A stretch of DNA of 64,000 nt from Isoetes taiwanensis (Eukaryota > Streptophyta > Lycopodiopsida > Isoetales > Isoetaceae). How positions within the stretch are numbered: position 1 is the first letter of the stretch; each line of letters starts with the position of its first letter. The stretch spans positions 12,598,134 through 12,662,133 of the forward strand of contig JAJEKV010000028.1 in NCBI GenBank assembly GCA_021234155.1, in the 5' to 3' direction. The translations under genes and the position numbers were made by a program. Positions 9,172-48,555 of this stretch are shown here, piece by piece. The notes below the pieces were generated by a model. That model was not told the DNA's origin. It was given only the letters and a program-made list of their open reading frames with translations, and made no database searches.

Positions 9172-9670
9172 TAGACGAAACAAATGTATTGAATTTATAG
9201 TTTTACAACAAAGTAAGGCTTTTTAATTTCTCAAGGCTCTCTACTTAATTTGAACATCCGATTGTCTTGCTTCAAACTAGTGAAGAATTCCTGCGGGCAG
9301 AATGGAAAACTACTTAGTAAATGCTAATGCTAATACCACTAGAAAAACAACTCAAGCTAATGAATAGCAACTTAGAACTAATTATCATTCCATTAGCATT
9401 ACAACATAACCCTTAGCAAACCAAACCACAAACCTAATAGGGACATTGGGATGAAAGCATTGCTAATCAGAGTGGTAGGTGGGCTTTACTAACTACGATT
9501 AAGTTTAGTGCTAACATTGACAAATTTACTAACAGTGGCACCAACATTAACGAAATTGGTAAGATTAGCACTCTCATTTATAAAATCACTAACACTGGCA
9601 CTAACATCAACACAATTACTAAAAGTGGCACGAACATTATGAAGGTGAGAAACCTTAGCACTATAACAAA
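9172..9670. other. AT-rich flank of the giant CACTA-type element
   Basis: About 500 bases without a gene. It contains imprecise short repetitions of 'gctaa', 'ttagca' and 'actaacA' type that resemble degenerate minisatellite DNA. It ends at the AAA that precedes the CACAA terminus at 9,671. Confidence 0.4.
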
Positions 9671-10170
9671 CACAACAAGAAAAAGGCCATTTAGCGACGC
9701 CAATATGACGTCACGGACGCCCACAAGAACGCCCGACGGCTGCCGCCATCGCCGCTGCACGCCGTTAGCAGACATCGCCGCGATGCGACGCGGCGGCCGC
9801 ATGCGACGCTGGTCGGCGTCAGCTGCAGACGCCGCGCAGACGCGACGCAGACGCCGCCAGACGCCGCGATGGCACGCCACACGCGGAAATATACACGGGA
9901 ATATACACGCGGAATATACACGCGGAACATCACCAAAATCCACGCGTCGCCGCCAAAGCCACGCGTATACGCCGCATGCGACGCGACACGTGGAAATGCA
10001 TATCGGAAAATTCAAAATCCGCAGTAGAAAAGCCACGAGCAAAAAAAAAAAAAGCTGGATACGCCGTGATGCGACGCGAAGGGGAAAAAAAAAAAAAAAA
10101 AAAAAAAATATTTATATAAAAGCCACGCGGCAAAAAAAAGCCGTGGATACGCCGATGCGACGTGAAGGGG
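9671..10170. repeat. Left subterminal GCGACG-rich array of the giant element
   Basis: From 9,690 to about 10,000 the sequence is packed with GACGC, GCGACG and GCATGCGACG words in both orientations, with short repeats of 'atacacgcggaa'. It then becomes A-rich with homopolymer runs. In Spm/CACTA elements, subterminal repeats of this type bind the TNPA-type protein; that role is inferred here. Arg-rich open frames through it are artefacts of the repeat. Confidence 0.6.
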
Positions 10171-16074: not shown

Positions 16075-16880
16075 AAGAACAAAGAAGAAAAAGATCAAGA
16101 AGAAAGAAAGGAAAAAAAAAGGGGGGATAGAAAACAAGAGATAGAAATAAAACAAGAGAAAGAAATAAGAGAATAGAAGGGAAGAAATAAGGATAGAATA
16201 GAGAAGAAATAAGAGAAGAAACAAGAAAGAATGAAGAAAAATAAGAGGAAATAAGAGAAGGGAAGGGAATAGAATGGAAGGAAGAAATAAGGGAAGGGAA
16301 AGAAAAGGATCGAATGGAAAGTGAGGAAGAAATGTGAAGAATAAGAAACAAATGAAGAATGAAGAAATGAAATTAAAAAGAATGAAGAATAAGAAATGAA
16401 AAAAAAAAAGAATAAGGGAAGGGAAGAGAAGAAAAAGAAATGAGGGAAGGGAGGGAAAGAATTAGGAATGAGAAAGCATGAGAAAGAATGGAAATGAGAA
16501 ACAAATGAGAAAGCATGAGAAAGAAATGAGAAAGAAATGAGAAAGCATGAGAAAGAAATGAGAAAGCAAGAAATTAGAAAGAATGAGGAAGAATGAGAAA
16601 GAGTGAGGAATAAAGAATGAGAAAGCATGAGGAAGAAAGAAATGAGAAAGAATGAGGAAGAAAGAATGAGAAAGAAATGAGGAAAGAAGAAATATGGGAA
16701 GAAAGAATGAAGCATGGAAGAAGGAGGAAGAAATGAAGCATGAGGAAGAATGAGGAAGAAATGAAGCATGAGAAAGAAAGGAGGAAGAATGAACGAGGCA
16801 TGGAAGAATGGGAAGAAAAAAAATCAAGAACAAAGAAGAAGAGGAAGGAAAGGAAACCAAAAAAAGAGGAAGGTTGGGCA
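16075..16880 (+). repeat. 0.8-kb polypurine minisatellite
   Basis: The plus strand is almost purely A and G, broken mainly by isolated T in ATGAG or AATAAG. Irregular units such as GAAAGAAATGAGAAAGCATGAG repeat with variable length. Long Phe/Ser-rich frames on the minus strand (up to 224 codons) are produced by the pyrimidine strand and are not genes. Polypurine tracts of this length can form triplex structures; this is general knowledge, not shown here. Confidence 0.9.
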
Positions 16881-17952: not shown

Positions 17953-18525
17953 CTAACCCTTTGACCTAGACCTTCTCCAAAAATTTCAAAATTGGGTCCG
18001 TGTGATGGAGATGGATTAGGAATCCAAATGGCAAAAAATCAGAATTTATTTTCGCATAATGCATTAATTGCGAATTTATGAATGTCTTGCCACCGCAAAA
18101 GCCCCCCACTTCTACTTGCCACATCGGGAGGAGGACAGGCCCAAACTCCGCCCGCCTGCTCCCCTTGCTCGTATTCTCGGCCGCACTCGGCCAGTCCCAA
18201 ATGCAATGCACTGCCCCCCGCCCCCAAAATGCAAACCCTTCTAGAACCCTCGGCAACCCACAGGGTTTACGCTTTGAGGCCCTCTCCTTGTCGATTAGGG
18301 CGGACCTTGCGCCGCGGACTTGACGGGAGTGGGGGTGTTGATGCTAGAGCACGGACCCTAAAAATCCCCCTAAGCTGCTTGCCCCGAATTTCCTCTCCCC
18401 AAGGCCCTGGGGATCTGACCATTTGTGACCTCCCTCTCCTGGAATCAAAGCGATTTGACTCTCATGTGAATGGACTCGAACGACGACGCTGCCCTAGGGA
18501 CCAGTTCTCGCGGGTCGATTAAGGA
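17953..18525 (+). repeat. Partial 1.11-kb satellite monomer, first half
   Basis: Begins CTAACCCTTTGACCTAGACC and follows the monomer for about 570 bases, up to the GACGCTGCCC...GGGACCAGTTC block. It is then interrupted by the 18.5-19.4 kb minisatellite. Confidence 0.85.
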
Positions 18526-18529
18526 GCCA

Positions 18530-19377
18530 AAGGTCACCAAAATCGGTTTGAGAGACCAAGGAGGACGATCCAAGTCGGGTGGGCAGCCAACCAACCGAAC
18601 CAAACACCGCCGAAAGTCGGGTGGGCACACACCAGCCCGGGCGGTTGGGTAGCCGACTATCGGAGCCAAACACCACCAAGTCGGTTGAGAGACCAAGGAG
18701 GACGATCCAAGTCGGGTGGGCAGCCAACAAACCCAAACAAACACCACCGAAGCCTGTCCCGTGGGCAGCCAAACACCACCGAAGCCGGTGGGCGCCAACC
18801 ACCACCAAGTCAAATGGGGAGCCAAACTAACCGACAGAGCCACCAAGTCGAATGGGCAGCCAACTAGCCAACCAAACACCACCGAAGTCTGGGTGGGCAC
18901 CTAACCCACCACCAAGTCGAGTGGGGAGCCAAACACCACCAACTCGGGTGGGTAGAACTCGACGATCCGACCACACGATTCTACCAAGTCGGTGGGCAGC
19001 CAACTAACCGAACCAAACACCACCCAGTCGGGTGGGCAGCCAACCACCCAGCCAAACACCACCAAGTCGTGTGGGTAGCCAAGCTGATCGATTAGACCAC
19101 ACGACACGACCAAGTCGGGTGGGGAGACAACAACGGCGATCCAAGTCCTCGCCAAGTCGGATGGGTAGCCGACATAGCCATCAAGTCGAGTGGGCAGCCA
19201 GTCGGGTGGGCAGCCAACCACCACCAAGTCGGTTGGGTAGCCAAACTAACCGACAGAGCCACCAAGTCGGGTGGGCAGCCAACTAACCGAACCAAATGGG
19301 TGGGAAGCCAACAACGGCGGGCCAAAGACCCGACCAAGTTGGATGGGTAGCCAAACACCACCAAGTCGTGTGAGCGC
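18530..19377 (+). repeat. ACCAAGTCGGGTGGGCAGCCAA minisatellite
   Basis: Some fifteen to twenty irregular copies of a 40-60 bp unit built on CACCAAGTCGGGTGGGCAGCC, with ACCGAACCAAACACC spacers. It sits inside a satellite monomer: monomer sequence stops near 18,525 (monomer position about 570) and resumes near 19,378 (about 150), so it interrupts the array rather than simply adding to it. Open frames through it are repeat artefacts. Confidence 0.85.
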
Positions 19378-22300
19378 CCCCCGACTTCTACTTGCCACAT
19401 CGGGAGGAGGACAGGCCCAAACTCCGCCCGGCCAGTTCCCTTGCCCGTTCAGACTCGGCCGCGCCTTCTCGCCAGGTCCCCAGTGCAACAGACCAAGTCT
19501 CGCCCCAAAACGCAAAACCCTTCTAGAACCCCTGCAACCCACGGGGTTTACGCTTTGGAGGCCCTCTCCTTGTCGATTCGGCGGGACCTTATACGCGGAC
19601 TTGACGCGGATTGGGGTGTTGACGCCGTGAGCACGGACTCCTAAAATCCCCCCGAAGCTGCTTGCCCCGAATTTCCTCTCCCTAAGGCCCCGGGACGGAC
19701 GGGCGACCTCCCCTCCTCGAATCGCGATTTGACTCTCGCCAATGGACTCCGAACGCCGACGTTGCCCCCGGGGACCAGTTCGTGGGCCGGAAGACCACCC
19801 CACCTCCAAGAAGCGCCAAAGTAGCTCACTTCCATCACACCCCTCGTAGTCAATTGGCCTAGGATGTGGATGCGATACCTTTTTATGGCGTGGAGGGCGT
19901 GGAGTGTTTCTTTCTTTTGCAAACCGACCTTGTAACTTGCTCCCTAGGGTAATTTCGCCATTCCGGACGATTTGGCAGGGTCGATTTGCCATTCGAACCT
20001 CCCCTGCCCGAACGACAAGACACCAAGGTTTACAAGGTCACCTCGTGGCGCCGGTTTGACAAGTTCTCCTGACCGATCTTGAATCTTTGGGCCTTCCCCG
20101 AAGAGGGGCCCCGAACGAGGATCCAACGTCGGATAGGGGAACCGGCCCGGAGGGTGGTCATTAGCGCAGCAGCCCCGGAGCTACCGCCAAAGAAGGGCTG
20201 CCTCGGGAACTTTTTGATCCCGCCTCTTGGGGTCCTGACTCTCCCTCTTGTGAGGGATCCCCGCAAGGTCCCGCCTCGCTTGACTTGGGGAAGGGTGCCA
20301 TCTCTGCTGCCCCCGCAACGGGCTGCCCCGACCGCTCTAATGCTAACCCTTTGACCTAGACCTTCTCCTAAAATTTCAAAATTGGGCTGTGGTGGCCGGA
20401 AATGGATTAGATTCCAAATGGCAAAAAAATCAGAATTTATTTTCGCACAATGCATTAATTGAATTTATGAATGTCTTGCCACTTCAAAAAGCGCCCCCTT
20501 TCTACTTGCCACATCGGGGAGGAGGATGTGCCCAAACTCCGCCTCGTCCCGGGCCCCTTGCTCCGTATTCTCGGCTGCTCCCGTCTGTGTCCTGCCCAAC
20601 TAAGACCAAGTCCAGCCCCCAAAACGCAAAACCCTTCTAGAACCTCGGGCAAACCCACGTGGGTTTACGTTTTGGAGGCCCTCTCCTTGTCGGATCGGGC
20701 GGACCTTTGCGCCGCGGACTTGACGTGGAGTGGGGTGTTGACGCCAGAGCACGGACCCCTAAAAATCCCCCGAAGCCTGCCCCGGCCTCTCCCCAAGGCC
20801 CCGAGGGACCTGACGGGCACCTCCCCTCTCCTGGAATCGCGATTTGACTCTCGCCAATGGACTCAGGCGCCGACGCGTTGCCCGGGGACCAAGTTCCGCG
20901 GGCGAGGAGACCACCCGACCTCCAAGAAGCGTAAAGTAGCTCACTTCCATCACACTCGTAGTCAATTGGCCTAGGATGTGGATGCGGGATACCGCTGTCG
21001 GGAGGGCGGAGTGTTTTCTTTTTTGCAAAACCGACCTTGTAACTTGCTCCCTAGGGTAATTTCGCCCATTCTGACGATTTGGCGTGGTCGATTTGCCATT
21101 CGAGCCTCCCGCGTTCGAACGACAAGACATCATGGTTTCTACAAGGCCGAATTCGGGACGCCCATGTTTGACAAGTTCTCCCGACCATCCGGAATCTTTT
21201 GGGCCTTCCCGAAGAGGGGCCTCAACGGAGGATCCAAATCTGTCGGATAGGGGAACCGGCCCGGAGGGTGGTTTGACAAGCGTCACCCCTCGGAGCGCCG
21301 CCAGAAGGGCTGCCTCGAACTTTTTGGATCCCGCCTCTGGGGTCCTGGACTCTCCCCTCTGTGAGGGATCCCCGCAAGGTCCCCGGCCTCGCTTGACTTG
21401 GGGAAGGGTGCCAGCTCTGTTGCCCCGCAATCGGGCTGCCCCCTGACCGCTCTAATGCTAACCCTTTGACCTAGACCTTCTCCTAAAATTTCAAAATTTG
21501 GGCTGTCGAAATGGATTAGGATTCCACCCGCAAAAATCAGAATTTATTTTCGCACAATGCATTAATTGGCATTTATGAATGTCTTGCCATCGCAAAAGTG
21601 CCCCCGACTTCTACTTGCTACATCGGAGGAGGACAGGCCCAAACTCCGCTCCGCCGGTTCCCCTTGCTCCGTATTCTCGGCTGCAGCTTATCTACCAGTC
21701 CTTAAGTGCAAATGTATTCAAGTCTCGCCCCCAAAACGCAAAACCTTCTAGAACCCGGCAACCCACGGGGGTTTACGTTTTGGAGGCCCTCTCCTTGTCG
21801 ATTCGGGGGGACCTTGGCGGCTGTGACTTGACGTGGAGTGGGGGTGTTGGACGCCAGAGCATGAACCCTAAAATCCCCCTCCCGCTGCCCCGGAATTTCT
21901 TTCCCCAAGGCCCCTGGGACCGGACGGGCGACCTCCCCTCCCTGAATCGCTGATTTGACTCGCCAATGGACTCGAACGCCGACGCTGCCCTGGGGACCAA
22001 GTTCCGTGGCCTTAAGACCACCCGACCTCCAAGAAGCGCCAAGTAGCTCACTTCCATCACACTCGTAGTCAATTGGCCTAGGATGTGGATGCGGATAATC
22101 TTGCCGTGGAGGGCGTGAGTGTTTCTTTCTTTGCAAAACCGACCTTGTAACTTGCTCCCTAGGGTAATTTCGCCATTCCTGACGATTTGGCGGGGTCGAT
22201 TTGCCATTCCGAAGCTCCCTGCGTCTCTAACGACAAGACATCATGGTTTCTACAAGGTCGATTCTCGTGGCGCTTCGGCTGTTTGACAAGTTCTCCCGGA

Positions 22301-25300
22301 CCGACCGAATCTTTTGGGCCTTCCCCGAAGAGGGGCCCCGAATCCAGGGGATCCAACGGGTCGGATAGGGGAACCGGCCCGAGGGTGGTTCATTAGCGTG
22401 CAGCTCGGGAGCGCCGCCAGAAGGGGGTCCTCGGGAACTTTTTGATCCCGCCTCTTGGGTCCTGGACTCTCCCTCTTGTGAGGGATCCCCCCAAGGTCCC
22501 GCCTCGCTTGACTTGGGGAAGGGTGCCGCCTTCTCGTTGCTCGCAACGGCTGCCCCGACCGCTCTAATGCTAACCTTTGACCTAGACCTTCTCCTAAAAA
22601 TTTCAAAATTGGGCCGTGGCCGAAATGGATTAGATTCCAAATGGCAAAAATCAGAATTTGTTTTCGTGACAATGCATTAATTGCGAATTTATGAATGTCT
22701 TGCCACTTCAAAAGCTCCCACTTTCTTCTACTTGCCACATCGAGGAGGACAGGCCCAAACTCCGCCCCGCCTTCCTTGTTCCGATTCTCTACCTGCAGCT
22801 TTTCTCCGGCTGTGTCCTGCGCAATGAGATCAAGTCTCTACCCCCAAAACGCAAAACCCTTTCTAGAACCCGCAACCCACAGTGGTTTACGCTTTTGGAG
22901 GCCCTCTCCTTGTCGATTCTAAGGACCTTTGGCTTTGACTTGACGTGGGAGGGGGTGTTGACGCCAGAGCACGACCCTAAAATCCCCCTAAGTCGCTTGC
23001 CCCTAATTTCCCTCCCCAAGGCCCCTGGGGACTGACGGGGCACCTCCCTCTCCTAATCGCGATTTGACTCTCGCCAATGGACTCTTTAACGCCGACGTTG
23101 CCACAGGGACCAAGTTCAAGCGGGCGAGAAGACCACCCGACCTCCAAGAAGCCAAAGTAGCTCACTTCCATCACACTCGTAGTCAATTGGCCTAGGATGT
23201 GGATGCGGATACCGTGGAGGGCGTGAGTGTTTCTTTCTTTTTTGCAAAACCGACCTTGTAACTTGCTCCTAGGGTAATTTCGCCATTCCTAACGATTTGG
23301 CAGGGTCGATTTGCATTCCCGAGCCTCCCTATGCCCTCAACGACAAGACATCAAGGTTTCTACAAGGCCGACCTCGTGGCGCTTGCGGTTTGACAAGTTC
23401 TCCCTACCGATCTGAATCTTTTGGGCCTTCCCCAGAAGAGGGGCCCCGAATCCAGGATCCAACGGGCCGGATAGGGGAACCGGGCTCCGGAGGGTGGTCA
23501 TTAGCGCAGCCCCGGGAGCCGCCAGAAGGGAAAGGGCTGCCTCGAACTTTTTTGGATCCCGCCTCTTGGGGTCCTGACTCTCCCCTCTTGTGAGGGATCC
23601 CCTCGCAAGGTCCCGGCCTCGCTTTGACTTGGGGAAGGGTGCCACTCGCTGTTCTACAACGGGCTGCCCCACCGCTTCTAATGCTAACCCTTTGACCTAG
23701 ACCTTCTCCTAAAATTTCAAAATTGGGCTGTGTGCCGGAAATGGATTAGGATTCCACCGCAAAAATCAGAATTTATTTTCGCACAATGCATTAATTGCGA
23801 ATTTATGAATGTCTTGCCATCGCAAAAGTGCCCCCGACTTCTACTTGCCACATCGGAGGAGGACAGGCCCAAACTCCGCCCCGCCGGGCCTTCCCCTTGC
23901 TCCTCAGATTTCTCGGCCGGCAGCTTTATCGCCAGTCCCAAGTGTACAGAGACCAAGTCTCCCCCAAAACGAAACCCTTCTAGAACCCGGCAACCCACGT
24001 GGTTTACGCTTTGGAGGCCCTCTCCTTGTCGATTCGGCGGGACCTTGCCTTTGACTTGACGTGGGAGTGGGGGTGTTGACGCCGTGAGCATGAACCCTAA
24101 AATCCCCCTAAGTCGCTTGCCCCCGAATTTCCTTTCCCCAAGGCCACCCCGGACGGACGCACCTCCCTCTCCTGAATCAGCGATTTGACTCTGCCAATGG
24201 ACTCGGAACGCCGACGCTGCCACGGGGACCAAGTTCCGCGGGCCAGAAGACCACCCGACCTCCAAGAAGCCAAAGTAGCTCACTTCCATCACACTCGTAG
24301 TCAATTGGCCTAGGATGTGGATGCTGGATACCGCCGCGGGAGGGCGTGAGAGTGTTTTTCTTTTGCAAAACCGACCTTGTAACTTGCTCCCTAGGGTAAT
24401 TTCGCCATTCCGGACGATTTGGCGGTCGATTTGCCATTCCTGAGCCCTCCCAGTGCCTAGTTCAAGACATCTAATTATTTTACAAGGCCGACCTCCCGGG
24501 CCCGCGTTTGACAAGTTCTCCTGGCCGATCTGGAATCTTTTGGGCCTTCCCCAAGAGGGGCCCCCCAATCCAGGATCCAACCTGGCCGGATAGGGGAACC
24601 GCCCGAGGGTGGTCATTGTGCGTTTTCCGGGAGAGCCGCCAGAAGGGTCATTCTAGAACTTTTTTTGGATCCTTTTCACTTGGGGTCCTGACTCTCCCTC
24701 TGTGAGGGATCCCCTCGCAAGGTCCTGGCCTCGCTTTGACTTGGGAAGGGTGCGGCACCGTTGCCCCGCAACGGGCTGCCCCACCGCTCTAATGCTAATC
24801 CTTTGACCTAGACCTTCTCCGAAAAATTTCAAAATTGGGCTGTGGTTGGAAATGGATTAGATTCCAGCCGCAAAAAATCAGAATTTGTTTTCGCACAATG
24901 CATTAATTGGTGAATTTATGAATGTCTTGCCACCGCAAAAAGCGCCCCCGACTTCTACTTGCCACATCGGGAGGAGGACAGGCCCAAACTCCGCCCGGCT
25001 CCTCCTTGCATCCGTGATTCGCCCCAGCCTTCTCGGCTAGGTCCTGCGTGCAACAGACCAAGTCTCGCCCCCAAAACGCAAACCCTTCTAGAACCCTCGC
25101 AACCCACGGGGTTTACGTTTTTGGAGGCCCTCTCCTTGTCGGTTCGGGCGGGACCTTGGCCGCGGACTTGACGTGGAGTGGGGTGTTGACCTTGAGCACG
25201 GACCCTAAAATCCCCCTAAGCCGCTTGCCCCGAATTTCCTCTCCCCAAGGCCCTGGGGACGGACCGGCCACCTCCCTCTCCGGAATCGCGATTTGACTCG

Positions 25301-26045
25301 CCAATGGACTCGAACGCCGACGTTGCCACCTCGGACCAAGTTCCGTGGCCGGAAGACCACCCGACCTCCAAGAAGCGCCAAAGTAGCTCACTTCCATCAC
25401 ACTCGTAGTCAATTGGCCTGGATGTGGATGCAGATACCGCCGTGGAGGGCGTGGAGTTTCTTTCTTTGCAAACCCGACCTTGTAACTTGCTCCCTAGGGT
25501 AATTTCGCCCATTCCTGACGATTTGGCAGGGGTCGATTTGCCATTAGGAGCCTCCCTGGTGCCCGAACGACAAGACACCTGCGGTTTCTACAAGGCCGAC
25601 CTCGGGGGCGCCCGGTTTGACAAGTTCTCCTGACCGATCTGGAATCTTTTGGGGCCTTCCCCAAGAGGGCCCCCGAACGGAGGATCCAACGGCCGGATAG
25701 GGGAACCGGGCCGGGAGGGTGGTCATTAAGCGTCGCGGCCGGGGGCGGCTGCCGGAAGGGCTGCCTCGAACTTTTTGATCCGCCTCTTGGGGTCCTGGAC
25801 TCTCCCCTCTTGTGAGGGATCCCCTGCAAGGTCCCGGCCTCGTTTGACTTGGGAAGGGTGCCACCAGTTTGCCCTACAACGGGCCCCCACCGCTCTAATG
25901 CTAACCCTTTGACCTAGACCTTCTCCAAAATTTCAAAAATTGGCCTGTGTCGGAAATGGATTAGGATTCCAGGTGGCAAAAATCAGAATTTATTTTCGTA
26001 CAATGCATTAATTAAGTAATTTATGAATGTCTTGCCAACGCAAAA
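19378..26045 (+). repeat. GC-rich satellite array, monomer about 1.11 kb
   Basis: Monomer starts (CTAACCCTTTGACC or a close variant) lie at 20,343, 21,458, 22,570, 23,684, 24,795 and 25,901, giving spacings of 1,115, 1,112, 1,114, 1,111 and 1,106 bases. The first monomer (19,378-20,342) lacks about 150 bases at its start; the last stops after about 145 bases at the TNP2 fragment. Each monomer has an AT-rich start and a GC-rich body with fixed landmarks such as GGAGGCCCTCTCCTTGTCG, CACTCGTAGTCAATTGGCCT and GTAACTTGCTCCCTAGGGTA. Differences are mostly 1-4 base indels at CCGG, CTGG or CCG words. Antisense open frames of up to 299 codons show no recognised domain, and a monomer length not divisible by three argues against an array-wide protein. 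Confidence 0.9.
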
Positions 26046-26070: not shown

Positions 26071-26562
26071 TCAATAGAGCGAGACACTTGCATTGCTCCA
26101 CTTGAACTTGGTTTGGAGATTGAGAATTAGCGGGTACTGCAAAACAAGCGAGGTTTGAGACGCAGAAATAACCTCGTTTCCGCTCGATAACAATAGGGTC
26201 ATCGTCGCATCACGACCAATCCTCGAAGGGTATCCCACATCTTCTACCATATCCTCTCCACCACCATCCTCGACATCATCTAAATCAATATCAGGTAATT
26301 CTTGAAGAGCGTGCAACATATCGAGCATCGGCTCGTCACGAAAGACTTCGTTCTCGGGTTCGTCAATAGTTTCATCCTCTACATATTGATCGTATGCAAT
26401 ATCTTCATATTGGTGCTCCTGAGAAATTCCACGGCGATAGGTTTCCCTTTGCCTGTAACTTAGAACTAATGGATCGGGATGGAGACCGCTCTGAATGAGT
26501 TCATTAACCAGGAGTAACGTATTAACCATCATGTCAAATAATGTAATAAGTATAAAATACAT
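26071..26562 (-). pseudogene. TNP2-like CACTA transposase fragment (giant element)
   Basis: A 163-codon frame ends in LILNLQTKFKWSNASVSLY, matching LILNLQHKVGWSKNSVSKLF of the transposase in the smaller CACTA element at 46.5 kb. It is preceded, as there, by a long acidic region (here with DIDLDDVEDGGGEDMVED). In TNP2-like proteins this block lies just N-terminal to the transposase core. The frame stops where the next exon should begin and the satellite array starts within 30 bases, so the catalytic region is missing. Its presence supports the CACTA identity of the surrounding 23-kb element. Confidence 0.6.
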
Positions 26563-26649
26563 ACAACCATTTGTATAGACTCACGAATGACAAAAAACAT
26601 ATTAAAAAAAAAAAAAAAAAAAAACCTCTTTATTCCTTTTTTTTTAGTA

Positions 26650-37105: not shown

Positions 37106-37853
37106 ACATCAATTTCACTTTGTCATTTATTGTGACAAGAGACATCTTGACTCTTGACTCGGCTAGGTAGTCCATAATAATGATCTATATGCATGCCATA
37201 ACGAGTTCACATGGAGGCAACAAAACGAACGCATTAACGTTTATATGGGATTAACAATGAACAATGGCACTTGGGGCTGTGAGCGATATAATAGCATGTC
37301 GGCGAAGCACACGATTTTTCTCATTTGAGTCTTGGTAATGTAATAGCACAAATATTAGACAATGGAGCACACAAGTTGAACCGTGGTAGTGAATGCAGCA
37401 CACAACTTCTCTTAGTTGTTGAACCTTATGAAGCACCCACCCAAGGGTCTTTAGTTGGACCTTATGGTGGAATACCACCATGAGAATATTAAATCCATCT
37501 ATGGCGCCAAATGGCAATTATGATAAGTGGCAAGACCCTCACCGTTCGGCGGAACAGGGCCTTTTGCACCCTATTTGTCCTTAGCAAGGTTGGTAGAATT
37601 TTAAAGGGACTCCTTTGTTTGATGGCAGAAATCATAAAAGAGCATGTCCGTCATGTTGCATTTTGGTGAGTAATTGCAGAGATAAAAACATTCGGGAACT
37701 AGGTTATGCATTAGTTCATTCGGATAGATTTCCAACGGCAGCTGGCGAGTTAAAGTAACTCTGTCATGCATAAAAAGGCAGGGCCTTTGAAGCATCCAAC
37801 ATATTTTCCATCTGTAAGCATTGTTTACCTTTCTGTTCCTCAGTTTTCTTAAC
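37106..37853. other. Region upstream of the BAHD gene
   Basis: About 750 bases between the MITE and the BAHD start codon. It presumably holds the promoter; I could not fix a TATA box or transcription start with confidence. Confidence 0.3.
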
Positions 37854-39348
37854 ATGAAGGTTTCATTGTTAACTGTTTCCACGGTTGTGCCTTCAATTCC
37901 AACCAAAAAGGATATCATGCATCTCTCTCCCTTTGATCACTTGCATAGAATTGTACCTTATATGCAAAGAATCCTTTTTTATGCCATTGACCTTGAATCT
38001 CAGGAGGATTACACTAGAATCGTTGATATGTTGAAACTTAGCTTGGCTGACACCCTTTCCTGGTTCTATCCTCTAGCAGGAAGGCTTAGTGATGGAAAAC
38101 TTGGTCCTCCTCATGTAGACTGCAATGATGAGGGGGTTGAATTTATTGAAGCTTCGGCAGATGATATCTGTTTTCAAGATGCTGTTCATGAAGCAAAGCT
38201 CTGGCCTGACCTTGCCGCCATGAAAAAAGTCAGGATAGTAGATGTACCTGAGCTTCCTCTTCTGTCTGTGCAGGTAAAAACATATTTGGATCTTTTTTTC
38301 TAGGATGGCATTGATTTTTTTTTATTTTTTTTATTTTTGCTTTGCCTTAAATCCTAATTAAAAATCTTATGCTGTATACATATAGATTTATGTCATATAC
38401 ATGAATGTGTTTCTGCAGGTTACCAGGTTTGGATGTGAGGGCATCTCCCTTGGCATAGCATTCAACCATGTCATTATGGATGGAAAATCATTCTGGCATT
38501 TTGTCAGATCTTGGTCAGAGATTTCAACAGGTGCCTCTAACATTTCTGTTCCTCCAATCCATTCCAGATCTATACAAATGTCTTCAGAACACATTCCTGA
38601 TACACCTAGTCTCTCCAATATTCATCAACCACCATCTGCAGTCTACAAATACTCTCTCCCATATGAGCAATACCTAGATCTTGTGTTCACTGTGGCACCA
38701 CAAACTAAAGTGCAGCAAAAGCACTTCTATTTCTCGTTTTCCACTTTAGACAAGCTCAAACAACAGATATGCACAGAAAGTGATGAGAAGTCTTTAAAGG
38801 TTACTTCACTCAAGGTTATATGTGCCTATGTTTGGAAAGCCCTTCTCAAAGCCAGGAAAGCCAACAGAACTAGCGAGACCGGCTTCTACACAATCATAGA
38901 CATGAGGAAAAGGATCAATCCTCCCCTTGAGGAAGGTTATTTTGGCAATGTGATTACTGTTGTAGGTGCAATTACAAAAACAGGCAATCTTCTAAAAAAT
39001 GGACTTTCTTATGCTGTGAAACTTTTGGAAGAATCTATAAAGTTGGCCACAGAGGCAGATGTGAAAACTGTGATGGAGAATTTTGAAAATCAAGGAAATG
39101 TGATTCTTGTGCCTTCTAATTTAGAACTGCAGCACTGGTTTGGGACCTTGAGTTCTCCTAATTTTGCAGTGTATGAGACGGAGTTTGGTTGGGGCAAACC
39201 TGTTGCAGTAAGACCAGGCACTGTTGGCTATAAAGGCGTCCTGACATTCTTCAGATGTGAAGCTGGAATAGATGTGTTTGTGTCATGCACTGATAAAGAA
39301 CTAGCTGCACTTGGTGATGGTATGCACACTCCAAGTGTGGAAGTATAG
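37854..39348 (+). CDS. BAHD acyltransferase, HCT-like, two exons
   Basis: Two exons, 37,854-38,273 and 38,419-39,348, join in frame across a 145-base GT-AG intron (CAG|GTAAAA ... TTCTGCAG|GTT) to give 449 residues, the usual BAHD length. The ATG at 37,854 matches family N-termini (MKVSLLTVSTVVPSIP, then LSPFDHL). FYPLAGRL lies near residue 75. The catalytic HxxxD is HVIMDG, just after the exon junction, and its His takes the proton from the acceptor. The structural DFGWG motif is present as EFGWGKP, an Asp-to-Glu change. BAHD enzymes move acyl groups from CoA thioesters to alcohols or amines in the cytosol, for example in phenylpropanoid or cuticle metabolism. The acceptor cannot be told from sequence alone. 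No stop or frameshift is present, so it is likely active. The single intron position is typical of the family. Confidence 0.92.
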
Positions 39349-40705
39349 TATACCATATGATATACTTGTATCTTCCATAACGTAGTTCAAATCTACAAGG
39401 GCATGATATGAGATTAGTTATGACGATTGCATAATATCAAGGAGAGATCCTATTAGTATTCTCATGCTTATACATCAGCAAGATGGCCGGACTATCTTCT
39501 CAAAACATATCTATTGCATGCCAATATGCATATGCTCTTATTTGCTAACATAATACATTTCTCGAATTCTAATGAGGCTTAGCAATGCATATGCACTATA
39601 AAGAGCATATGTCGCTATGCTTTACAAATTCATATATAAGTGACTTAGCAAGTGGGTGGGCGGGTGTAAAAGAGGTTATTGCATAGCAAAAGGTATATGT
39701 CTACAAGCAACTAAGCAGCTTGTAGCTAAGAGACTTGGTATTTAAGATGCATAGCGTATGGTCGTATATATGCCTACAAGTAATTTATCAAGTGGAATGG
39801 TATGAAAGAGATCAAGATCAAAGATTAAAGGAATAACAATGCATAGATAAAACAATGGATTGCCTCAATTCCATGGGTTGGCATTTTAGAGAGCGATGGT
39901 GACATAGTTATTGATCCCACAAATGAGCACATTTTATTCAATATTGAGACACAATGCATACAATCATCGTCTTCCTACATATATATGTGATTAGTAGAGG
40001 AAAAAAAGGACAAAAAAGAAATAATAATCCAAAAATGAAGTTTTCACACAAAATAAAATTTCAAAAAATATTAGATTTGGAACTGAAAAGTGTTTTTCCG
40101 GCCAAACAATTGTTATGACTAGGAAACATGCCTAGGCCTGCCTCTACCACCGATACAACCCCCCCACCAAACGACTCATTTGAGGTAATAACTTTTAGTT
40201 CTAATGTCATTAGTGCGGTTTCTCGCAGATTTGGAGGAATTTCAGGCATTGGCGACTAACCTGAGTTCACATCCTTGGAGCCTAGCATGCATCAATCTAG
40301 CCTGCTTCGGACTCCGCTCTACCCCGAGCATGCATGCATTTCTTATTCACCAAAATTCACACACAATCCATCAGGTTATTTAGCTTGGCCATTCTTATTT
40401 TTAGCATCGAGAAGAATGTTGCACTTGCTCGTGATCCTTGAACACCCATTTTTTTTTATGTTACAAGTCTTGCATTGCATCTTCATAATATTTTAGTGGG
40501 CTATTGTGGCCCTACCTCCCAAGGTGCTCAAATTTTTCCCTTAGGGTACCAATTAAGGCCTAAAAGTGTCATGATTGGTAAATACAGTCACACGTATGAA
40601 CAAGAAAGGTTTACAAAATGCCAACCATTGGGGAAGAAGAGATAGAAAGGAAGATTTATAGTGCAAAATTGGCTCATTTAGCTACTGTTGCAAAGAGGGC
40701 AGATT
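39349..40705. other. Downstream of the BAHD gene, nothing recognised
   Basis: AT-rich. It contains an inverted pair of GCATATGCTCTT-like words (39,529-39,612). No gene, RNA or clear transposon end was seen before the CACTA terminus at 40,706. Confidence 0.4.
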
Positions 40706-43375
40706 CACTACAAGAGAAATGTACCTATAGTGTCTAGTGTAATGTCAACTTTTTTGACACAAACAGAACCTGTCAAAACCCAATTATTGTCACAACCTTG
40801 CCACTATACTTGTCGTGATCATTTGTCACAAACATGCCACAATAGCGTCAAATGTTGTGTCAAGCTTGTGGCTTCAATTTATGACATAATATTGACACAA
40901 AATCAATTTGAACTATATGGCAGTCTAGAAAATGGCGAACTTGTGACAATATTTTAACAACATTGTGATAAATAAATAGAAGTCCATATGAATACTATTA
41001 CATCAACATTATCGCGAGCTAGCGACAAAGTAGTAGCTATAATTCATCCACAATAAGACAATCAATAAGAACATTTGTGACCCATTTTGTAGCTAACAAA
41101 TAGTTAGTGTTGTGACCACATTGTGATAAATAAATAAAGCTTATACCAACTACACAGCATCAACATCATGGCAATGTATTGACAATATAGTAGTTATATT
41201 TCCAACAACTAATAAGAAATTTTGTGACTAGTTTGGTCTCTAAAGAAGCACTATTTTTCATTGTTGTGACGACATTATGATAGATAAATAAACAACTGAT
41301 AACAATTTCTATGAGTTTTGTGTCTAGGTAATAGCTAATTTAAGACAATTTATGCATTGTATCTTGTGTCAAAAGGATAAACATCTAAGTATTTTTTTTT
41401 TGCTTGAATAACAAATATTCTGATTTCTGAAATTCGATAACAAAAACCAAAGTAATAAAGTTTCATTGATCAACAATGAATTTCCAACATAACAAACTAG
41501 AAAAAGTGCCCAGCGTTGCTGGGCTTTTTGTTGGGCATTAAGTTCAAGAGTTATAAAATGTGAGTTTTATTTTACAAGGGCGTATTTCAACTTTACAAGG
41601 GCGTATTTCAACGATGCCAAATGGCATTCATGTTGTTGACAAAAAATACAATAGGTTGAGGAATCTAAAATTAATTATGTTAAGAGTCAAATTGTTGCAC
41701 GGAACTATGACAGGCATAAATACAAACAGCTGAGGCATTAGTTCAAAAAGGTGGAAAAACTCCTAACCTTAAGCTGTGGCTGCGTGACCTGTACACCCAA
41801 AGACTATAATTGTAAATACTTATGACGAATCACCAAAAACAAAATGCCTCAGCTTGTCTGCAACAGGGATACTGTTCTTATTTTCAATGCCATTCCCAAG
41901 CAGCTTATTTCCTATACGCTGTTAGAGATGATCCTCAATATTCTGATCTTTATACATATAATACAATTTTTGTCCTGACACTCTGGTCACTTCAAAGATA
42001 ATACTATTCTTAAGGGGAAGAAATGAATACATAAATCTGCTTGAAGGTAATAAATAATAGGTTTAAAGCCATGCAAATACTTGGTAGCCCTCACCTTTTC
42101 CCCTATGGCATTAGCATATCCACCACTAATCGATGCAATCTCTTGTTTCAAAGATGCTATTTCTTTTCTGGCCTGCACAGCCAAAAATTCTCATGTTAAT
42201 CAAACTGGCTATGCGCTCATCTATTATAGGCAAGGTTTATAAGCAGAAAGAATGGACAAAAAGTTTTTTTCATTGTTTAAAAGTAGAAGCATACTTCTGC
42301 TATTTTTTTTTCATGTTCAACCTCCAGCTTCTGTATGTGTAGTTCATGGTCTTTCTCAATTTCTTCCATTTTTCTTAGCCTCGAGCAATGTTTGCTGCAA
42401 CAAGATAAGATGTCATACATAAGTTAGAGAATAGAGATAACATAAAATGTTACATTTAACACTTCACATGCCTCTCTGTGTATAGCTATTTCATGCTTTT
42501 CATTGACTTCAGCCTCGGACATAAACGTGATGGGTTTCCAGCCATGGTTATCCTACATGGGCAGAAATCTATGTATTTTACCTGATCATTCCGTTGCGAA
42601 ATCTCTTTCAAATGCCTTGTAAGTTCTGCTTGCTTTTCTTTAAGCTGATACTGTGATTGCTTCTTGATTTCTAGCACTTTTTTTTCAGTGGCAACCACCT
42701 GCGCTTGTATCTAGAATGGCATAATTTAATGGCATAATTAATTGGAAAGATGGGTTTCGCTAAACTTTTTCCAAAGTTTGTGATGGAAACCAATGCGCAA
42801 GCTTGTGAGCATACCTTGGTTTTCTGTTCCTCCAGCAGTTGTTTCTCCTCCTCAAGTTTCTGATTTGACATGCAAAGCTCATGGCATTCCTGACAAATAC
42901 GGTTGACATCCGACTGTTGTGATATAATCTGTTGTTCCAATAAAGCAATGCTTTGCAACATTGCTTGCTACTTTCTTTCTTGTTCAGTGATTTTCTCTTG
43001 TAGTGCAATTTCAACAGTCTGGCTTGCAGCTTTCGTTTCTGAAACAATCTCCATTAAATCATCCTGCAAAATGAACGAATGTGTCTATTAAGTCATATTT
43101 CTAATCACAAATAACGCAAGAGGAAAGTAACTTACCTTCTCTTTCTGTAATTACATTAAGGATTTATCTGGTGTTTGGCCAATGGTTCAGATTGACTGTG
43201 AAGGAGAAGGGCAACATATTGACAGAGCATTGCTAAAGAATGGCGTTGGCATCTTTGTTGAAATCTCGAATGCTGCAAGATATTGCTGCATATTATTCTC
43301 AGAAGGCGTCATCCTGGATTGAGAATGATTCATGTCCAGATTGCATGCTGAAGGTGATGAATCCATGGTCCGGAG

Positions 43376-43570
43376 GAAGGTAAACGAATCCATGCGTATG
43401 TTCTGGAATCTGGCATTGAATCGGATGTTTGCATTGCAACTTGTCTGATTGACATGTATGGTAAATGTGCGAGGATAGGTGATGCATCAGAGATATTTGA
43501 TAGAACACCTTTCTCTGATGTGAAACTGTGGAACACAATTATTGGAGCCTATCTGCGAGATGAAGATGAC
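43376..43570 (+). pseudogene. PPR (PLS-type) gene fragment within CACTA element
   Basis: One frame reads [20 protein letters not shown], then ATCLIDMYGKCARIGDASEI, FDRTPFSDVKLWNTIIGAYL. The order GKxIHAxVxxSG, LIDMYxKCGxxxxAxxxF and VxxWNTIIGAY is the classic L-S-P repeat sequence of plant PLS pentatricopeptide proteins, which bind organellar RNA. Only about two repeats are left, with a stop just upstream and no DYW or E domain. It lies in antisense between exons 2 and 3 of the captured coiled-coil gene, so it came from a different locus. Confidence 0.75.
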
Positions 43571-44027
43571 AAGCCTATACTCATACAAGCTATTAAAAAG
43601 AAAGTTCCATATCTTGAGCTTAACATCCACAAATTGAAAAGAAATGGAAAACATCATCACATCCTCTGTCCCATTCCCAAAAGTATTTGCTACAGCACAT
43701 TGATTGTTCATGTGCTTTCCTGTTATCTGTCCACTTGAATTTAGAGGAAAATATTCTTAAAGTATAGACCACAAATTTCACTTTACATTACTTTTATAAT
43801 GTAATCCACCTATGCACTTTTACAATGCTTAATCGAGATGCAAGAGATAGAAAATTAAAAACTTAAGGATGCTTGCACAAATTACATACCTCAGATTTAG
43901 ATAGTTCCTGTTTAAGACGATAGGACCTGCAGATTTTCTTTTCCTTTTGCCTCCTTGTTTTGAAGTTTCTGCTTCTGGGATATTGCCGGAACTCGATGAG
44001 CATTGATGCTCCTCCAACCTAGAAAGA

Positions 44028-44165
44028 AAGTTCAGCAAAAGGTTCAGCAAAAATCCAGCAAACAAATTGAGCAAACGGTCCAGCAAAAGGTACAGCAAAA
44101 ATCCAGCAAACACTTTGAGCAAACAGGCCAGCAAAAAGGTAGCAAAAATCCAGCAAACACTTTGA
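44028..44165 (+). repeat. About 50-bp tandem repeat in captured intron
   Basis: Three imprecise units of AAAATCCAGCAAACA-TTTGAGCAAAC-GxCCAGCAAAAGGT within intron 1 of the captured coiled-coil gene. The Gln/Ser-rich frames through it are artefacts. Confidence 0.8.
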
Positions 44166-45537
44166 GCGATTCCCTGTGCCTTCATACACGTTTAGTCTAT
44201 CTTTAAGACCAGGGTTATACAAAAAGATCATCAATGTAGAATTTTTTATGAATACAGTAGTTGAAATTACAATTCCTTGCGAAGAAAGAAGACTTTGAAA
44301 AGTTATAAGAAAGAAGGCTTGTCTACCTAATGAAATTCCAATTACAGTTCTCATTTCAAAGGATTTGGCATTCTTGGCTGTACACTCCTCCTAATAAATA
44401 TGACGAAAGGAAAGATGAAGTTGTGGATATAGGTAGTGCCCTTAATCCGGCATACATAGCACTGCTCTTCAAGAAAGAACCAAGCATATAATAACAGGCA
44501 AAGTTCTACAAGTCATACATGGGAAATCTTTCCAGAGATATGCTTCTAAGGAAAAGATATGTCCTAATTACGCAATATTTAGAGCTGAAACGTTTCAGCA
44601 AGCAAAGATGCAGATTCTCAGGCAAAATCTTAATGAGGTCAGAAACTTTTTTACGAAATAATGGCACCAAGAATAGTGGTTCGTAGCTTCAGAAAACATG
44701 AGCAGGATCAATGCAAACTCAATATTAGTTCATAGCAATCAAATTCTCACAGTTCGGATGTCAGGAGCAAAGCTGAAAGATGCATAAATAAATCGTATAA
44801 TTTACCTTCCCTTTCCATTCTTTTTCTTGTGCAACTCCTTTCCAGAGTCATCATTTTTGTCTTCAGTATTTCTTCGAATCCTCTTCTCCAATTCCGTCAT
44901 TAGGGCAGCCAGAACACCTTCTGGCACATTGGCCATGAAATTTTCCAGCGTACCTCCATTAGACTCCTCCGTAGATACACTTTTGCCCTTGTCGGATCTG
45001 TTGGAAGCCACTAAAGACCAGAAGAATGGAAAAAATTAGAAACTGACAACGATATAAATGCAAATGCAACTGAGGAAATCTAAAAACAGAAACTTTTTTG
45101 CCAGCATTTTTGTATTCTGCTTGAGTCAAGATGCTTACTGATGGTGCTTTGCGACCGCAAACGAAACCTAGAAGAGCAGACGCTACTCAGGAAGAATCAA
45201 CCAAGATTTATTGGTGCTCGACATGAAAAAAAGGTAATCCATCCCGCCATTTTTCTGTTCCAAACGGATCCCTTGTTTTTTTCCCTTTTTTTTACAATTT
45301 ACCTTTTTTTTTTCTTGCCATTGTGCTGTTCACCTAATGATGTTTTATTGATGTCCAAGTCATTAAAATTGCCTGATATTGAAATCGTATTGAACTTGAA
45401 ATCCCTTAACTAGTGTAGAATATACTAGCTGCTAGTATAGCATATGTTGTGTTAATGGTGTCAATGGCTAATGGTGTCAATGGCTAATGATGTCAATGGT
45501 GTTCAATGGTGTCAATGGTTAATGGTTGTTGTGTTAA

Positions 45538-46257
45538 TGACACGCGATCGGCCCCAGATAAGCACGCACTATTTAAGAAGGACGAATCAAGATTTATTCT
45601 ACTAACTGTGAACTAGGTAAGTAATCACGCCATATTTCTATTTGAAACATATCTTTGGGTTTCTCATCTTTTTCATCATTTTTTTGTCTCAATTTCGATA
45701 TTGGGTGTGATTATTGGTTCTTAGGCAAACAGTACTATATGTTCAGTATGTAGGGTATGAATATTGATTCTTATGCAGTAAAACCAATGGTCCACTTCAT
45801 TGTCTGCTAGGGTCATTTTTTGCTTTTCTAGATTTCATTATTGGGGTAATGATAGCTTGTACCATAATGGGGATCCAACGAGAATATTAGAAAGATTCAC
45901 TTTATCAGTTGCTAAGGTATTGCCTAGTAATTTTGAAAAAACATTAGTAATTTCGCATTCTCCAATGGTTTTAAAAGGGAATTAATTTTTCAAAGTGCTC
46001 GCCCTGGCTAGTATTCAGAAGGTTCACTTATTGTCTACTAGGTCATTTTAAGTTTATACCACAATGGGAAAAAGGTTTACTGTCATTGTGAGAAAACATC
46101 GTGGCTCTCGGGTGTCATTCATGCATGTGGACACGCGAACGGCCCCAGATAAGCACACACTATTAAAAAAGGACGAATCAAGATTTATTCTACTGGCTGT
46201 GAACTAGGTAAGTAATCACGCCATATTTCTATTTGAAACATATCTTTGGGTTTCTCA
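45538..46257 (+). repeat. Duplicated 120-bp leader in CACTA element
   Basis: A block starting GACACGCGATCGGCCCCAGA at 45,538 recurs at about 46,129 with few changes. Both contain GACGAATCAAGATTTATTCT and a donor-like AACTAG|GTAAGT, and the second ends at the acceptor TTTCTCAG (46,257) in front of the TNP2 exon. A third, weaker relative lies near 45,180. It looks like a duplicated 5' leader exon plus intron. TGTCAATGG tandem words lie just upstream (45,455-45,540). Confidence 0.7.
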
Positions 46258-47073
46258 GTGTCTGGATCACACAATGCATTTGTTGGTGAGGATGTGATTC
46301 ACAAAACCATTATGGATTTTTTTCCAACAAATGAACAAACTAGTGGTGGCGAAAATAACGATGGTGAGCATACGGGTAATGTGGATGGCGACTCATATGG
46401 GGAAAAGACAACATATCTCAACAATGAAGCAAGCAAACCATTGTTCCCTAATGCCCGTGTTTCTCGCCTTGCAACATGCATGTTGATTCTAAATCTCCAA
46501 CACAAAGTTGGTTGGAGCAAGAATAGTGTGTCCAAACTTTTCAGGTATGTATAGGCAAGTCATTCTTTTGTTTTTATATGGATGTAGAAATTACATAAGT
46601 ATGACTAATTGAATTTTTGTAGCTTACTTGATAAGATATTACCAGATGGACATTGTCTTCCAAAATCTAGGCGGGAGGCTAGAGAATTATTACGTTCTTT
46701 CGGATTGGAGTATAATATTGTGCATGCATGCATTAATGATTGCGTGCTATTCCGCAAAGACTATGCAAATGAGAAATCGTATCCAAAATGCAAGGAAGCA
46801 CGATATGAAGAAGGTAGAAAAACAAAGGTGGCGAGAAAGGTATTACGTCACATGCCTATAATCCCTCAACTTCGTCGTATGTTCCGATCTCCATTCAATT
46901 CGTCAATTCACATTGCTGGACATAATGCGGATTATATGGAAGACGAAGAGATTACCGAACATGCACATGATCCATCCGAAGCAATTAGGAATTTGGCTCT
47001 TTGTTTATATCTAGATGAGGATGAGATAGAGGATATGGAGAACGATCTTAATGAAGTTGCCACATGTGATTAA
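46258..47073 (+). pseudogene. Truncated TNP2-like CACTA transposase, two exons
   Basis: Exon A (46,258-46,544) follows an acceptor TTTCTCAG and carries SGSHNAFVGEDVIHKTIMDF, an acidic middle and LILNLQHKVGWSKNSVSKLF. It joins in frame across a 78-base GT-AG intron to exon B (46,623-47,073): SLLDKILPDGHCLPKSRREA, then GLEYNIVHACINDCVLFRKD, KSYPKCKEARYEE, and KVLRHMPIIPQLRRMFRSP. These are the N-terminal landmarks of TNP2-type CACTA transposases (LP-x-SxREAxxLL, IHAC-x-NDC-x-LFxKD, a Cys knuckle, KVLRxxPxxPRLxRxF). The usual second Cys of the knuckle is not obvious. The protein then turns acidic and stops at 47,073, before the catalytic region, so it is not a working transposase. Confidence 0.8.
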
Positions 47074-47743
47074 TCAACATTGTTAATCTTATTGCTATGA
47101 CTACTATGGTATAGATCATTTGGTATTGAGTATTGTTTTTTATCTTCCTATAAATTTGCTCCCTTGTTCAAGTTGTCGGGTACCCTTCACCATTATCTAT
47201 TCCCCTTCATCTGACTGTGTCCAAATCATTCTTTCTATCAAGTAACATTCCTTAGCGCAGTACCAAATCTTTAATGATATATGAATACCAAACTCAATTC
47301 TACTAATATATTAGATACAAATTGGATGGCATTATGTTATAAATCTCATAGAAATGTTATAATGATGGAGTTATAAATTTGTTAAAAAATTGTTGCAACA
47401 ACCCACTTAAATTGCAATATAAAGTTGACAAAATGCTCCTCAAAGTTCCGTTAAGATATTAGATGAAATTTTGGATAATCGTTTGTTATAAATCTTAAAA
47501 AAAAGTTGGCACAACTTAGCTTAAATATTGTTCAAAAGTTGTTGCAAAAACCTACTTAACATGCGATAGAAAGTTGACAAAAGGAGGTCATTGCTTTGAC
47601 AAAAGATTTGACACTATACAGTAGACACAATGTTGACACAACACAAGCACTTTGTGTCAAGATAGTAGTAATCGACACAAATTTGTCACTACACATAGGA
47701 CTTGTCACAAGGGTTGACACTATACCCCCATCCTCTTGTAGTG

Positions 47744-48555
47744 ATTGGGCAGAAGGGCAAGCTAAACACATTCGTGAGTTGGGATCTACATCTAAATTTG
47801 AGCATTTTCTATGGCCATTGATGCCTCAGTTTGCTTGAGAAGAGGCCAAAATCATGAATATTCGCATCACATTCAAGCTCATGGCTATAGATAATCATCT
47901 TCTGCATGAAACTATAAAATACATTAATGGAACATATATACTTTGCTTTCGCTTAGTTTTTTCAATTGTCCACCGATAACTAGGAAAGCTATTGGCCATT
48001 GGTGTAGATAAATGGATTTGTTCCTACAGGCACTTGCTGTCTCATGCCACCACATTTACTTTCATACCTTGCACTACATAACCACATAATATTACACAAA
48101 CAATTACATTCCCCACAACAATATCTTTTATATGCACAAGCATCGCATTTCCAGTGCCACACCTAAAGTGGCCATAACTCATTTGCTCCAATGGCAAAAC
48201 TACTATATAGATGGCAAGCATTTATGCAAGACTCCATTGTCGTGCGAACACATAATTAGCATGGTATGTGAGTCAACAGAAACAATCCCCAAATGTACTA
48301 TCACTGGCAATCTGGTAACTAGTGACTGCAAACAGGGTGTTTGCATGTCGTTAAGAGAAAATATCAAACCATTTGTAGTTGTCTCTTTCAGTTAAATATG
48401 CTTGATCTCACAACAGAAATGCCTCACATTTCAAGATATATGATGTATTTGTATGTTATTCTAGATAGACCTTGTTTCCGGTAGCCTTTCAGAGCTCTAA
48501 CTTAAGCATCTTTCATATATCATTAGTTTACATCTAAATTGTTGTAAGGGCAACC
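47744..48555. other. Intergenic, nothing recognised
   Basis: Flanking DNA between the CACTA element and the next transposon relic. No gene motif was seen on either strand. Confidence 0.4.

What the first reader, a model, noticed from the sequence alone, without database searches (positions are those of the whole stretch)
40706..47743. Complete CACTA element that captured at least two host genes
Perfect CACTACAAGAG termini and ATT duplications define a 7,038-bp element. Between a truncated transposase and the left end lie exons of a coiled-coil gene with exact splice borders and a PPR fragment in the opposite orientation. This is a Pack-CACTA arrangement with cargo from two unrelated loci.
Basis: partly seen in the sequence, partly recalled or inferred. 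Interest (0 to 1): 0.8.

Follow-up and report, generated by a model that had tools for sequence, protein, structure and literature searches.

The report
CACTA transposon with nested Helitron cargo
A cut-and-paste plant transposon contains the remains of a second kind of jumping element, a Helitron, which most likely brought in broken pieces of three ordinary plant genes; the kind of event is well known and no function is indicated.

Summary
The 7,038-bp CACTA element (40706-47743, TSD ATT) is real. Exons at 45010-43890 belong to the CACTA family's own second gene (within 14 kb of 15 of 40 left ends examined). Only 41690-43150 is host cargo: a ZYP1-like (synaptonemal-complex) gene fragment, 97-98% identical to copies outside this family. 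The "PPR fragment" is a cullin piece (43151-43360) beside a PPR piece (43369-43576, 98% to part of an 800-codon PPR frame). So there are at least three host genes.

The cargo's left border is a Helitron 3' terminus (hairpin plus CTAG), sitting exactly where three other family members read A^T. Genome-wide, this end is followed by T 998 times and by another base 3 times, as Helitron insertion requires. I conclude that a gene-carrying Helitron inserted into the CACTA element; its 5' end was then probably lost in a deletion reaching the second gene. "Pack-CACTA" is thus probably the wrong mechanism. The assembly size matches Isoetes taiwanensis. A new member of known kinds; moderate interest.

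The parts
40706..47743 (.). complete CACTA element, ends CACTACAAGAG
   Evidence: family arms found elsewhere
40703..40705 (.). target-site duplication ATT (left); right copy 47744-47746
40706..41496 (+). left CACTA arm, conserved in other family members up to 41496
   Evidence: (40 scored of 284 candidates): 14 places other than the window cover the whole arm, 11 at 92-97% and 3 at 87-91% (counted); exact break
41497..41692 (-). Helitron 3' end: hairpin GCCCAGCAACGCTGGGC, then ACTTTTT, then CTAG (its last base at 41497), followed by host T
41690..43150 (-). fragment of a ZYP1-like (synaptonemal complex transverse filament) gene with exons and introns; one in-frame stop in exon 43063-42815; about 460 bp missing at 42517-42523
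43151..43360 (+). cullin gene fragment (seems to run a few bases past the exon)
43369..43576 (+). PPR gene fragment, 98% to a piece of an 800-codon PPR frame
43577..45140 (-). 5' part of the CACTA family's own second gene (exons 45010-44806 and 44018-43890), not host cargo
45539..46257 (+). 128-bp direct repeat (45539-45666 and 46130-46257, 95%) upstream of the TNP2 remnant
46257..46889 (+). 5' exons of the TNP2 transposase, truncated before the Transposase_21 domain
46889..47743 (+). right part of the CACTA element (short terminal reading frame and right arm), shared with many family members

Best explanation
This is a non-autonomous, internally deleted CACTA element into which a gene-carrying Helitron inserted. 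The Helitron lies on the minus strand. Its 3' end (41497-41692) is intact and sits at an A^T target in the CACTA left arm. It carried fragments of a ZYP1-like gene, a cullin gene and a PPR gene. Its 5' end and some adjacent CACTA sequence (about 0.8 kb as judged by relative L059, about 2.3 kb by C1019) were then lost in one or more deletions that joined the PPR piece to the second gene at 43576/43577. Shown: the CACTA ends and TSD, the Helitron 3' end at an A^T empty site, the three gene identities, the donor-like copies, and the family-wide second gene. Inferred: that all three fragments rode in the same Helitron, that a deletion removed its 5' end, and that the composite has no function beyond being carried along by whatever CACTA transposase acts on its ends.
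For: Left border: L009, L010 and L059 read CATAACAAA^TGCCCATAAAAAATGAG, and the window switches at exactly that point to CTAG.... On the minus strand this is hairpin GCCCAGCAACGCTGGGC + ACTTTTT + CTAG, then host T. Only 1 of 200 shuffles folds at least as well. The exact end CCCAGCAACGCTGGGCACTTTTTCTAG is followed by T 998 times and by A, C or G 3 times in the whole genome; the reversed controls were 0 both times. The features 5'-TC, 3'-CTRR, palindrome and AT target are those given in a passage of PMC10095026. The 196-bp segment is a dispersed repeat: 42 matches, itself included (634 candidates, 40 scored); 20 of 42 alignments start at the host A and none at the first base of the end, and 21 of 42 stop at 41692, where ZYP1 homology begins. 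One of the closest ZYP1-like copies, C1040, has the same Helitron end about 5 kb from its ZYP1-like part, in the same orientation. C1053 holds the same CACTA/Helitron/ZYP1 junctions in two tandem copies.
Against: No 5'-TC end was seen at the right border (by eye), which has no Helitron signature. The cullin and PPR pieces lie opposite to ZYP1; C1044 has cullin and PPR together without ZYP1 or this Helitron end in the 3.2 kb seen, so they may have joined separately. No other copy of the whole 41497-43576 block was found in the searches made. The genome-wide count of empty CACTA sites was not obtained; the empty site rests on three members.
Confidence: 0.78

Rival explanations
1. Pack-CACTA capture: two neighbouring CACTA copies lost their facing ends and moved as one, taking along the host DNA between them (41497-43576), which happened to begin with a Helitron end.
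For: The element is exactly a left arm cut at 41496, foreign DNA, then a right part starting at 43577. This geometry fits the model described in passages of PMC13317346 and PMC8903248. Pack-CACTA elements holding several loci are common in maize.
Against: The left break coincides to the base with a Helitron 3' terminus and an A^T site, which this model leaves as coincidence.
Confidence: 0.11
2. Filler DNA: a break in the CACTA element was repaired by copying several unlinked templates, among them a Helitron end, ZYP1-like, cullin and PPR sequences.
For: The junctions show little or no microhomology and short extra bases, e.g. 8 bp between cullin and PPR. The pieces differ in orientation.
Against: The Helitron end would have to begin exactly at its terminus beside an A^T site; C1044 already has cullin and PPR together; C1053 has the Helitron-ZYP1 junction.
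Confidence: 0.09
3. The coiled-coil exons are all the standard second protein of this CACTA family, and there is no ZYP1 cargo.
For: True for the exons at 45010-43890.
Against: 41690-43150 matches other loci at 97-98% and Arabidopsis ZYP1A (29 of 56 identical, E 4e-10 against that one protein; alignment score 144 against a maximum of 89 in 300 heptad-preserving shuffles). No CACTA-like end lies in 15 kb around C1040 except the one inside the exon copies. The C1019 family member lacks it in the 10 kb seen.
Confidence: 0.02

Closest known systems
Gene-carrying plant Helitrons (maize examples recalled; definition from a passage of PMC10095026)
   Same: 3' palindrome plus CTRR, A^T insertion, several unrelated host gene fragments
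   Different: 5' end missing; nested in a CACTA element; in what is very probably a lycophyte; a ZYP1-like fragment among the cargo
Pack-CACTA (Arabidopsis, rice, maize; PMC8903248, passages)
   Same: CACTA ends and TSD around coding fragments from several loci
   Different: cargo begins at a Helitron terminus; the element keeps a TNP2 remnant and part of its own second gene
CACTA elements with captured gene fragments in Chenopodium (PMC8978399, passages)
   Same: host gene fragments in the 5' region of a CACTA element
   Different: in the passages seen these are treated as captures by the CACTA element

Membership tests
CACTA (En/Spm) superfamily | terminal inverted repeats beginning CACTA | tested here: met
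CACTA (En/Spm) superfamily | 3-bp target-site duplication | tested here: met
   ATT here; TCA and GAA in two siblings
CACTA (En/Spm) superfamily | TNP2-type transposase (Transposase_21) in the family | tested here: met
   relative L060 E 6.5e-27; only the 5' part in the window, without a Pfam hit of its own
CACTA (En/Spm) superfamily | subterminal repeats in both arms | tested here: met
   (inverted pairs I3, I5, I16; direct D5, D8, D9)
Pack-CACTA | host coding fragments between CACTA ends | tested here: met
Pack-CACTA | cargo taken up by the CACTA element itself (borders made by CACTA) | tested here: not met
   left border is a Helitron terminus at A^T; right border uninformative
Helitron | 3' palindrome followed by CTRR | tested here: met
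Helitron | insertion between A and T | tested here: met
   L009, L010, L059 read A^T at the break; the end is followed by T in 998 of 1,001 exact copies
Helitron | 5'-TC end | tested here: inconclusive
   none visible at the right border (by eye); the copy looks truncated, so only a Helitron remnant is claimed
Helitron | RepHel protein in the autonomous family | not tested
   not searched
ZYP1 (synaptonemal complex transverse filament) | sequence match beyond coiled-coil bias | tested here: met
   an N-terminal ZYP1 exon stands near the matching part in C1027
Cullin | Pfam PF00888 | tested here: met
   relative L070 (79% identical) E 7.5e-10, above cut-off; the window's own 31 codons only 0.076, at the same profile place
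PPR | Pfam PPR repeats | tested here: met
   donor-like L062 E 3.9e-85; the window frame E 1.3e-4, below the curated cut-off

The most novel reading that the evidence does not exclude
The CACTA element acts as a second-stage carrier: a Helitron collects fragments of ZYP1-like, cullin and PPR genes, enters a CACTA element, and the composite then moves by CACTA transposition, so that host gene pieces change vehicle between two unrelated transposition systems in a lycophyte. C1053, which holds the same CACTA/Helitron/ZYP1 junctions elsewhere, would be a decayed second copy.
Probability: 0.3. Interest if true: 0.5.

Novelty: new member of a known kind. Interest (0 to 1): 0.38.

Why it matters
It is a worked example of how a nested Helitron can pass for Pack-CACTA capture. 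Surveys that classify elements by their ends plus coding hits (as described in passages of PMC8903248) could count such cargo as CACTA-captured. It also points to an abundant Helitron family, with 998 exact 3' ends followed by T, in what is very probably the quillwort Isoetes taiwanensis; 'helitron' has 0 occurrences in the main texts of the two Isoetes genome papers looked at.

Tried and rejected
Rejected: one continuous captured coiled-coil gene (relatives split it). Rejected: the 9-bp 'exon' at 43144-43136 as a real small exon; it is the end of a longer ZYP1-like exon cut by the cullin join. Rejected: PPR continuing beyond 43576; what follows is CACTA sequence. Rejected: a Pfam NET2A hint for the coiled-coil (E 0.0002 on one exon frame and 0.0085 on joined exons, both below cut-off). 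The PDB search with the ZYP1-like exons gave 3 weak hits, best E 0.055. Literature: 'CACTACAAGAG' gave 13 papers, by title none on transposons; 'Isoetes' with 'Helitron' gave 2 papers, listings only.

Mended after the one check: the count of whole-arm matches (11 plus 3, not 13); the missing CACTA stretch (0.8 to 2.3 kb, depending on the relative); the CTAGV control, which ran and supports the reading. For that reason the confidence of the best explanation went from 0.72 to 0.78 and those of the first two rivals went down.
Full report
What was checked. The element at 40706-47743 is a complete CACTA transposon: 7,038 bp, CACTACAAGAG at both ends, ATT on both sides. The window lies in a 1,658,258,908-base assembly of 1,110 contigs. 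The Isoetes taiwanensis assembly is 1658.30 Mb in 204 scaffolds and 909 unplaced contigs (PMC8566536, passages), so the species is very probably that quillwort; this is inferred from size and contig number only.

The family. The left arm has 64 matches, itself included (284 candidates, 40 scored), the right arm 40 matches, itself included (489 candidates, 40 scored). Fifteen of the 40 left ends, the window's included, pair with one of the 40 right ends on the same contig, giving elements of 2,085 to 20,889 bp, three of them near 12.5 kb. Siblings L009 (4,873 bp, TSD TCA) and L010 (3,630 bp, TSD GAA) share the window's arms at 89-98% but have other interiors, apart from a 199-bp inverted TNP2 piece in L009. 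The transposase is TNP2: relative L060 continues from the shared part into Transposase_21, E 6.5e-27. The window's copy is cut at 46889 and then joins a right part that has 40 matches, itself included (251 candidates, 40 scored).

The second gene is not cargo. DNA at 43740-45140 has 62 matches, itself included (63 candidates, 40 scored). In C1019 it stands together with TNP2 in the same order as in the window. I compared 27 of these 62 places with the 40 left ends: second-gene sequence lies within the element, or within 14 kb where no right end was paired, for 15 of 40, and 13 of these 15 have the window's orientation. It lies inside 5 of the 15 two-ended elements, all 5 in that orientation. 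C1019 and C354 are the two inverted cases. Against C1019, about 150 bp are missing inside the second of them.

The ZYP1-like fragment. DNA at 41760-43150 has 95 matches, itself included (113 candidates, 40 scored). C1040 and C963 match both halves at 97-98%, and C954 the first half at 97%. Extended, the match runs from 41690 to 43150, and about 460 bp present in C1040 are missing in the window. In 15 kb around the C1040 copy the only TIR-like 10-mers are the ones inside the two exon copies. The exons match Arabidopsis ZYP1A (sequence printed in PMC9957857, passage): 29 of 56 residues identical, E 4e-10 with composition adjustment against that one protein. The local alignment score is 144, against mean 59.6, sd 6.8 and maximum 89 in 300 heptad-preserving shuffles; tblastn of ZYP1A finds window 42698-42579, E 1e-6. 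C1027 also has an N-terminal ZYP1 exon, 57% identical over 72 residues, and is the best candidate seen for a genuine gene. The window's copy has one in-frame stop where C1040 has none.

Cullin and PPR. The search with 43140-43800 gave 31 matches, itself included (28 candidates, all scored). 43369-43576 is 98% identical to C924:766749-766956, inside an open frame of 800 codons with PPR repeats (E 3.9e-85). 43151-43360 matches a different set of places. Relative L070 (79% identical) is a cullin (PF00888, E 7.5e-10), and the window's own 31 codons match the same profile place weakly (E 0.076). The cullin piece seems to run past the exon end into intron, so it was copied from DNA (inferred). C1044 holds cullin (93%) and PPR (91%) pieces 362 bp apart, which points to an older cullin-PPR chimera.

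The left border. L009, L010 and L059 agree beyond 41496 (AACAAA^TGCCCATAAAAAATGAG); the window and C1053 switch there to CTAG. Read on the minus strand, the segment ends in hairpin GCCCAGCAACGCTGGGC, ACTTTTT, CTAG, followed by host T. The hairpin has z -3.7 against shuffles. The exact end is followed by T 998 times and by another base 3 times, with 0 for the reversed control in both searches. In fetched DNA three independent sites (window and C1053 together, C1040, L005) are all followed by T. The 196-bp segment has 42 matches, itself included (634 candidates, 40 scored): 20 of 42 alignments start at the host A and none at the first base of the end, and 21 of 42 stop at 41692, where ZYP1 homology begins. 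These are the features of a Helitron 3' end inserted at A^T as stated in PMC10095026 (passage).

The right border. C1019, C354 and C1100 agree to the left of 43577, and the window differs. The PPR match ends at 43576 and CACTA sequence begins at once. No 5'-TC end is visible. In C1019 about 2.3 kb of CACTA sequence fills the interval that is foreign in the window; in L059 the interval up to 43713 is about 0.8 kb. A deletion that removed the Helitron's 5' end and neighbouring CACTA sequence explains this, but it is inferred.

Second occurrence. C1053 holds window 41253-42089, with both the CACTA/Helitron and the Helitron/ZYP1 junctions, in two copies 93% and 95% identical to the window, inside a tandem duplication of at least 6.4 kb. 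So the composite, or part of it, exists elsewhere. Whether it got there by CACTA transposition is open, since the outer arm is missing.

Verdict. The element and its mixed cargo are real, with three host genes rather than two. The captured coiled-coil gene was over-read by about half, and the mechanism is most likely a Helitron carrying gene pieces into a CACTA element. Gene-carrying Helitrons (passage) and nested transposons are well known; Pack-type elements with several loci are common in maize, Pack-CACTA most of all (PMC8903248, passages). New are the host lineage and the particular cargo, as far as searched: listings for Isoetes with Helitron (2 papers), Isoetes with genome and CACTA (12 papers, 10 listed), and 0 occurrences of 'helitron' in the main texts of the two Isoetes genome papers.

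Noticed in passing
window 37818-39348 (+): BAHD acyltransferase gene in two open frames (Pfam Transferase PF02458, E 2.7e-24 and 8.8e-52) about 1.4 kb left of the element.
   Followed up: partly
window 26071-26580 (-): Open frame that by eye resembles the N-terminal part of the TNP2 remnant; no Pfam hit. Possibly another CACTA remnant.
   Followed up: no
window 18000-26000: Block of 54-58% G+C in an otherwise 35-43% window, with tandem repeats and long frames; the one frame tested had no Pfam hit.
   Followed up: no
window 16131-16855: Long purine-rich tandem repeat tract.
   Followed up: no
L042 (C1040:7145001-7155000), 7500-10000: ZYP1-like and PPR-like fragments alternate on one strand in duplicated units, with the same Helitron 3' end at 1206; perhaps a long gene-carrying Helitron.
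   Followed up: partly
G000 C1037:13.02-13.49 Mb: Six ZYP1-like copies, 84-85% identical to part of the window's fragment, in half a megabase; a meiotic gene family with many copies here.
   Followed up: no
L060 (C1019) and C354: CACTA members whose interior is inverted relative to their left ends.
   Followed up: partly
L009 3976-4174: Sibling element carries an inverted 199-bp piece of a TNP2 exon, 98% identical to window 46257-46455.
   Followed up: no
G000 C1056:12199515-12226512: Three elements of 2,085-2,088 bp spaced about 12.4-12.6 kb apart, probably a tandem duplication.
   Followed up: no
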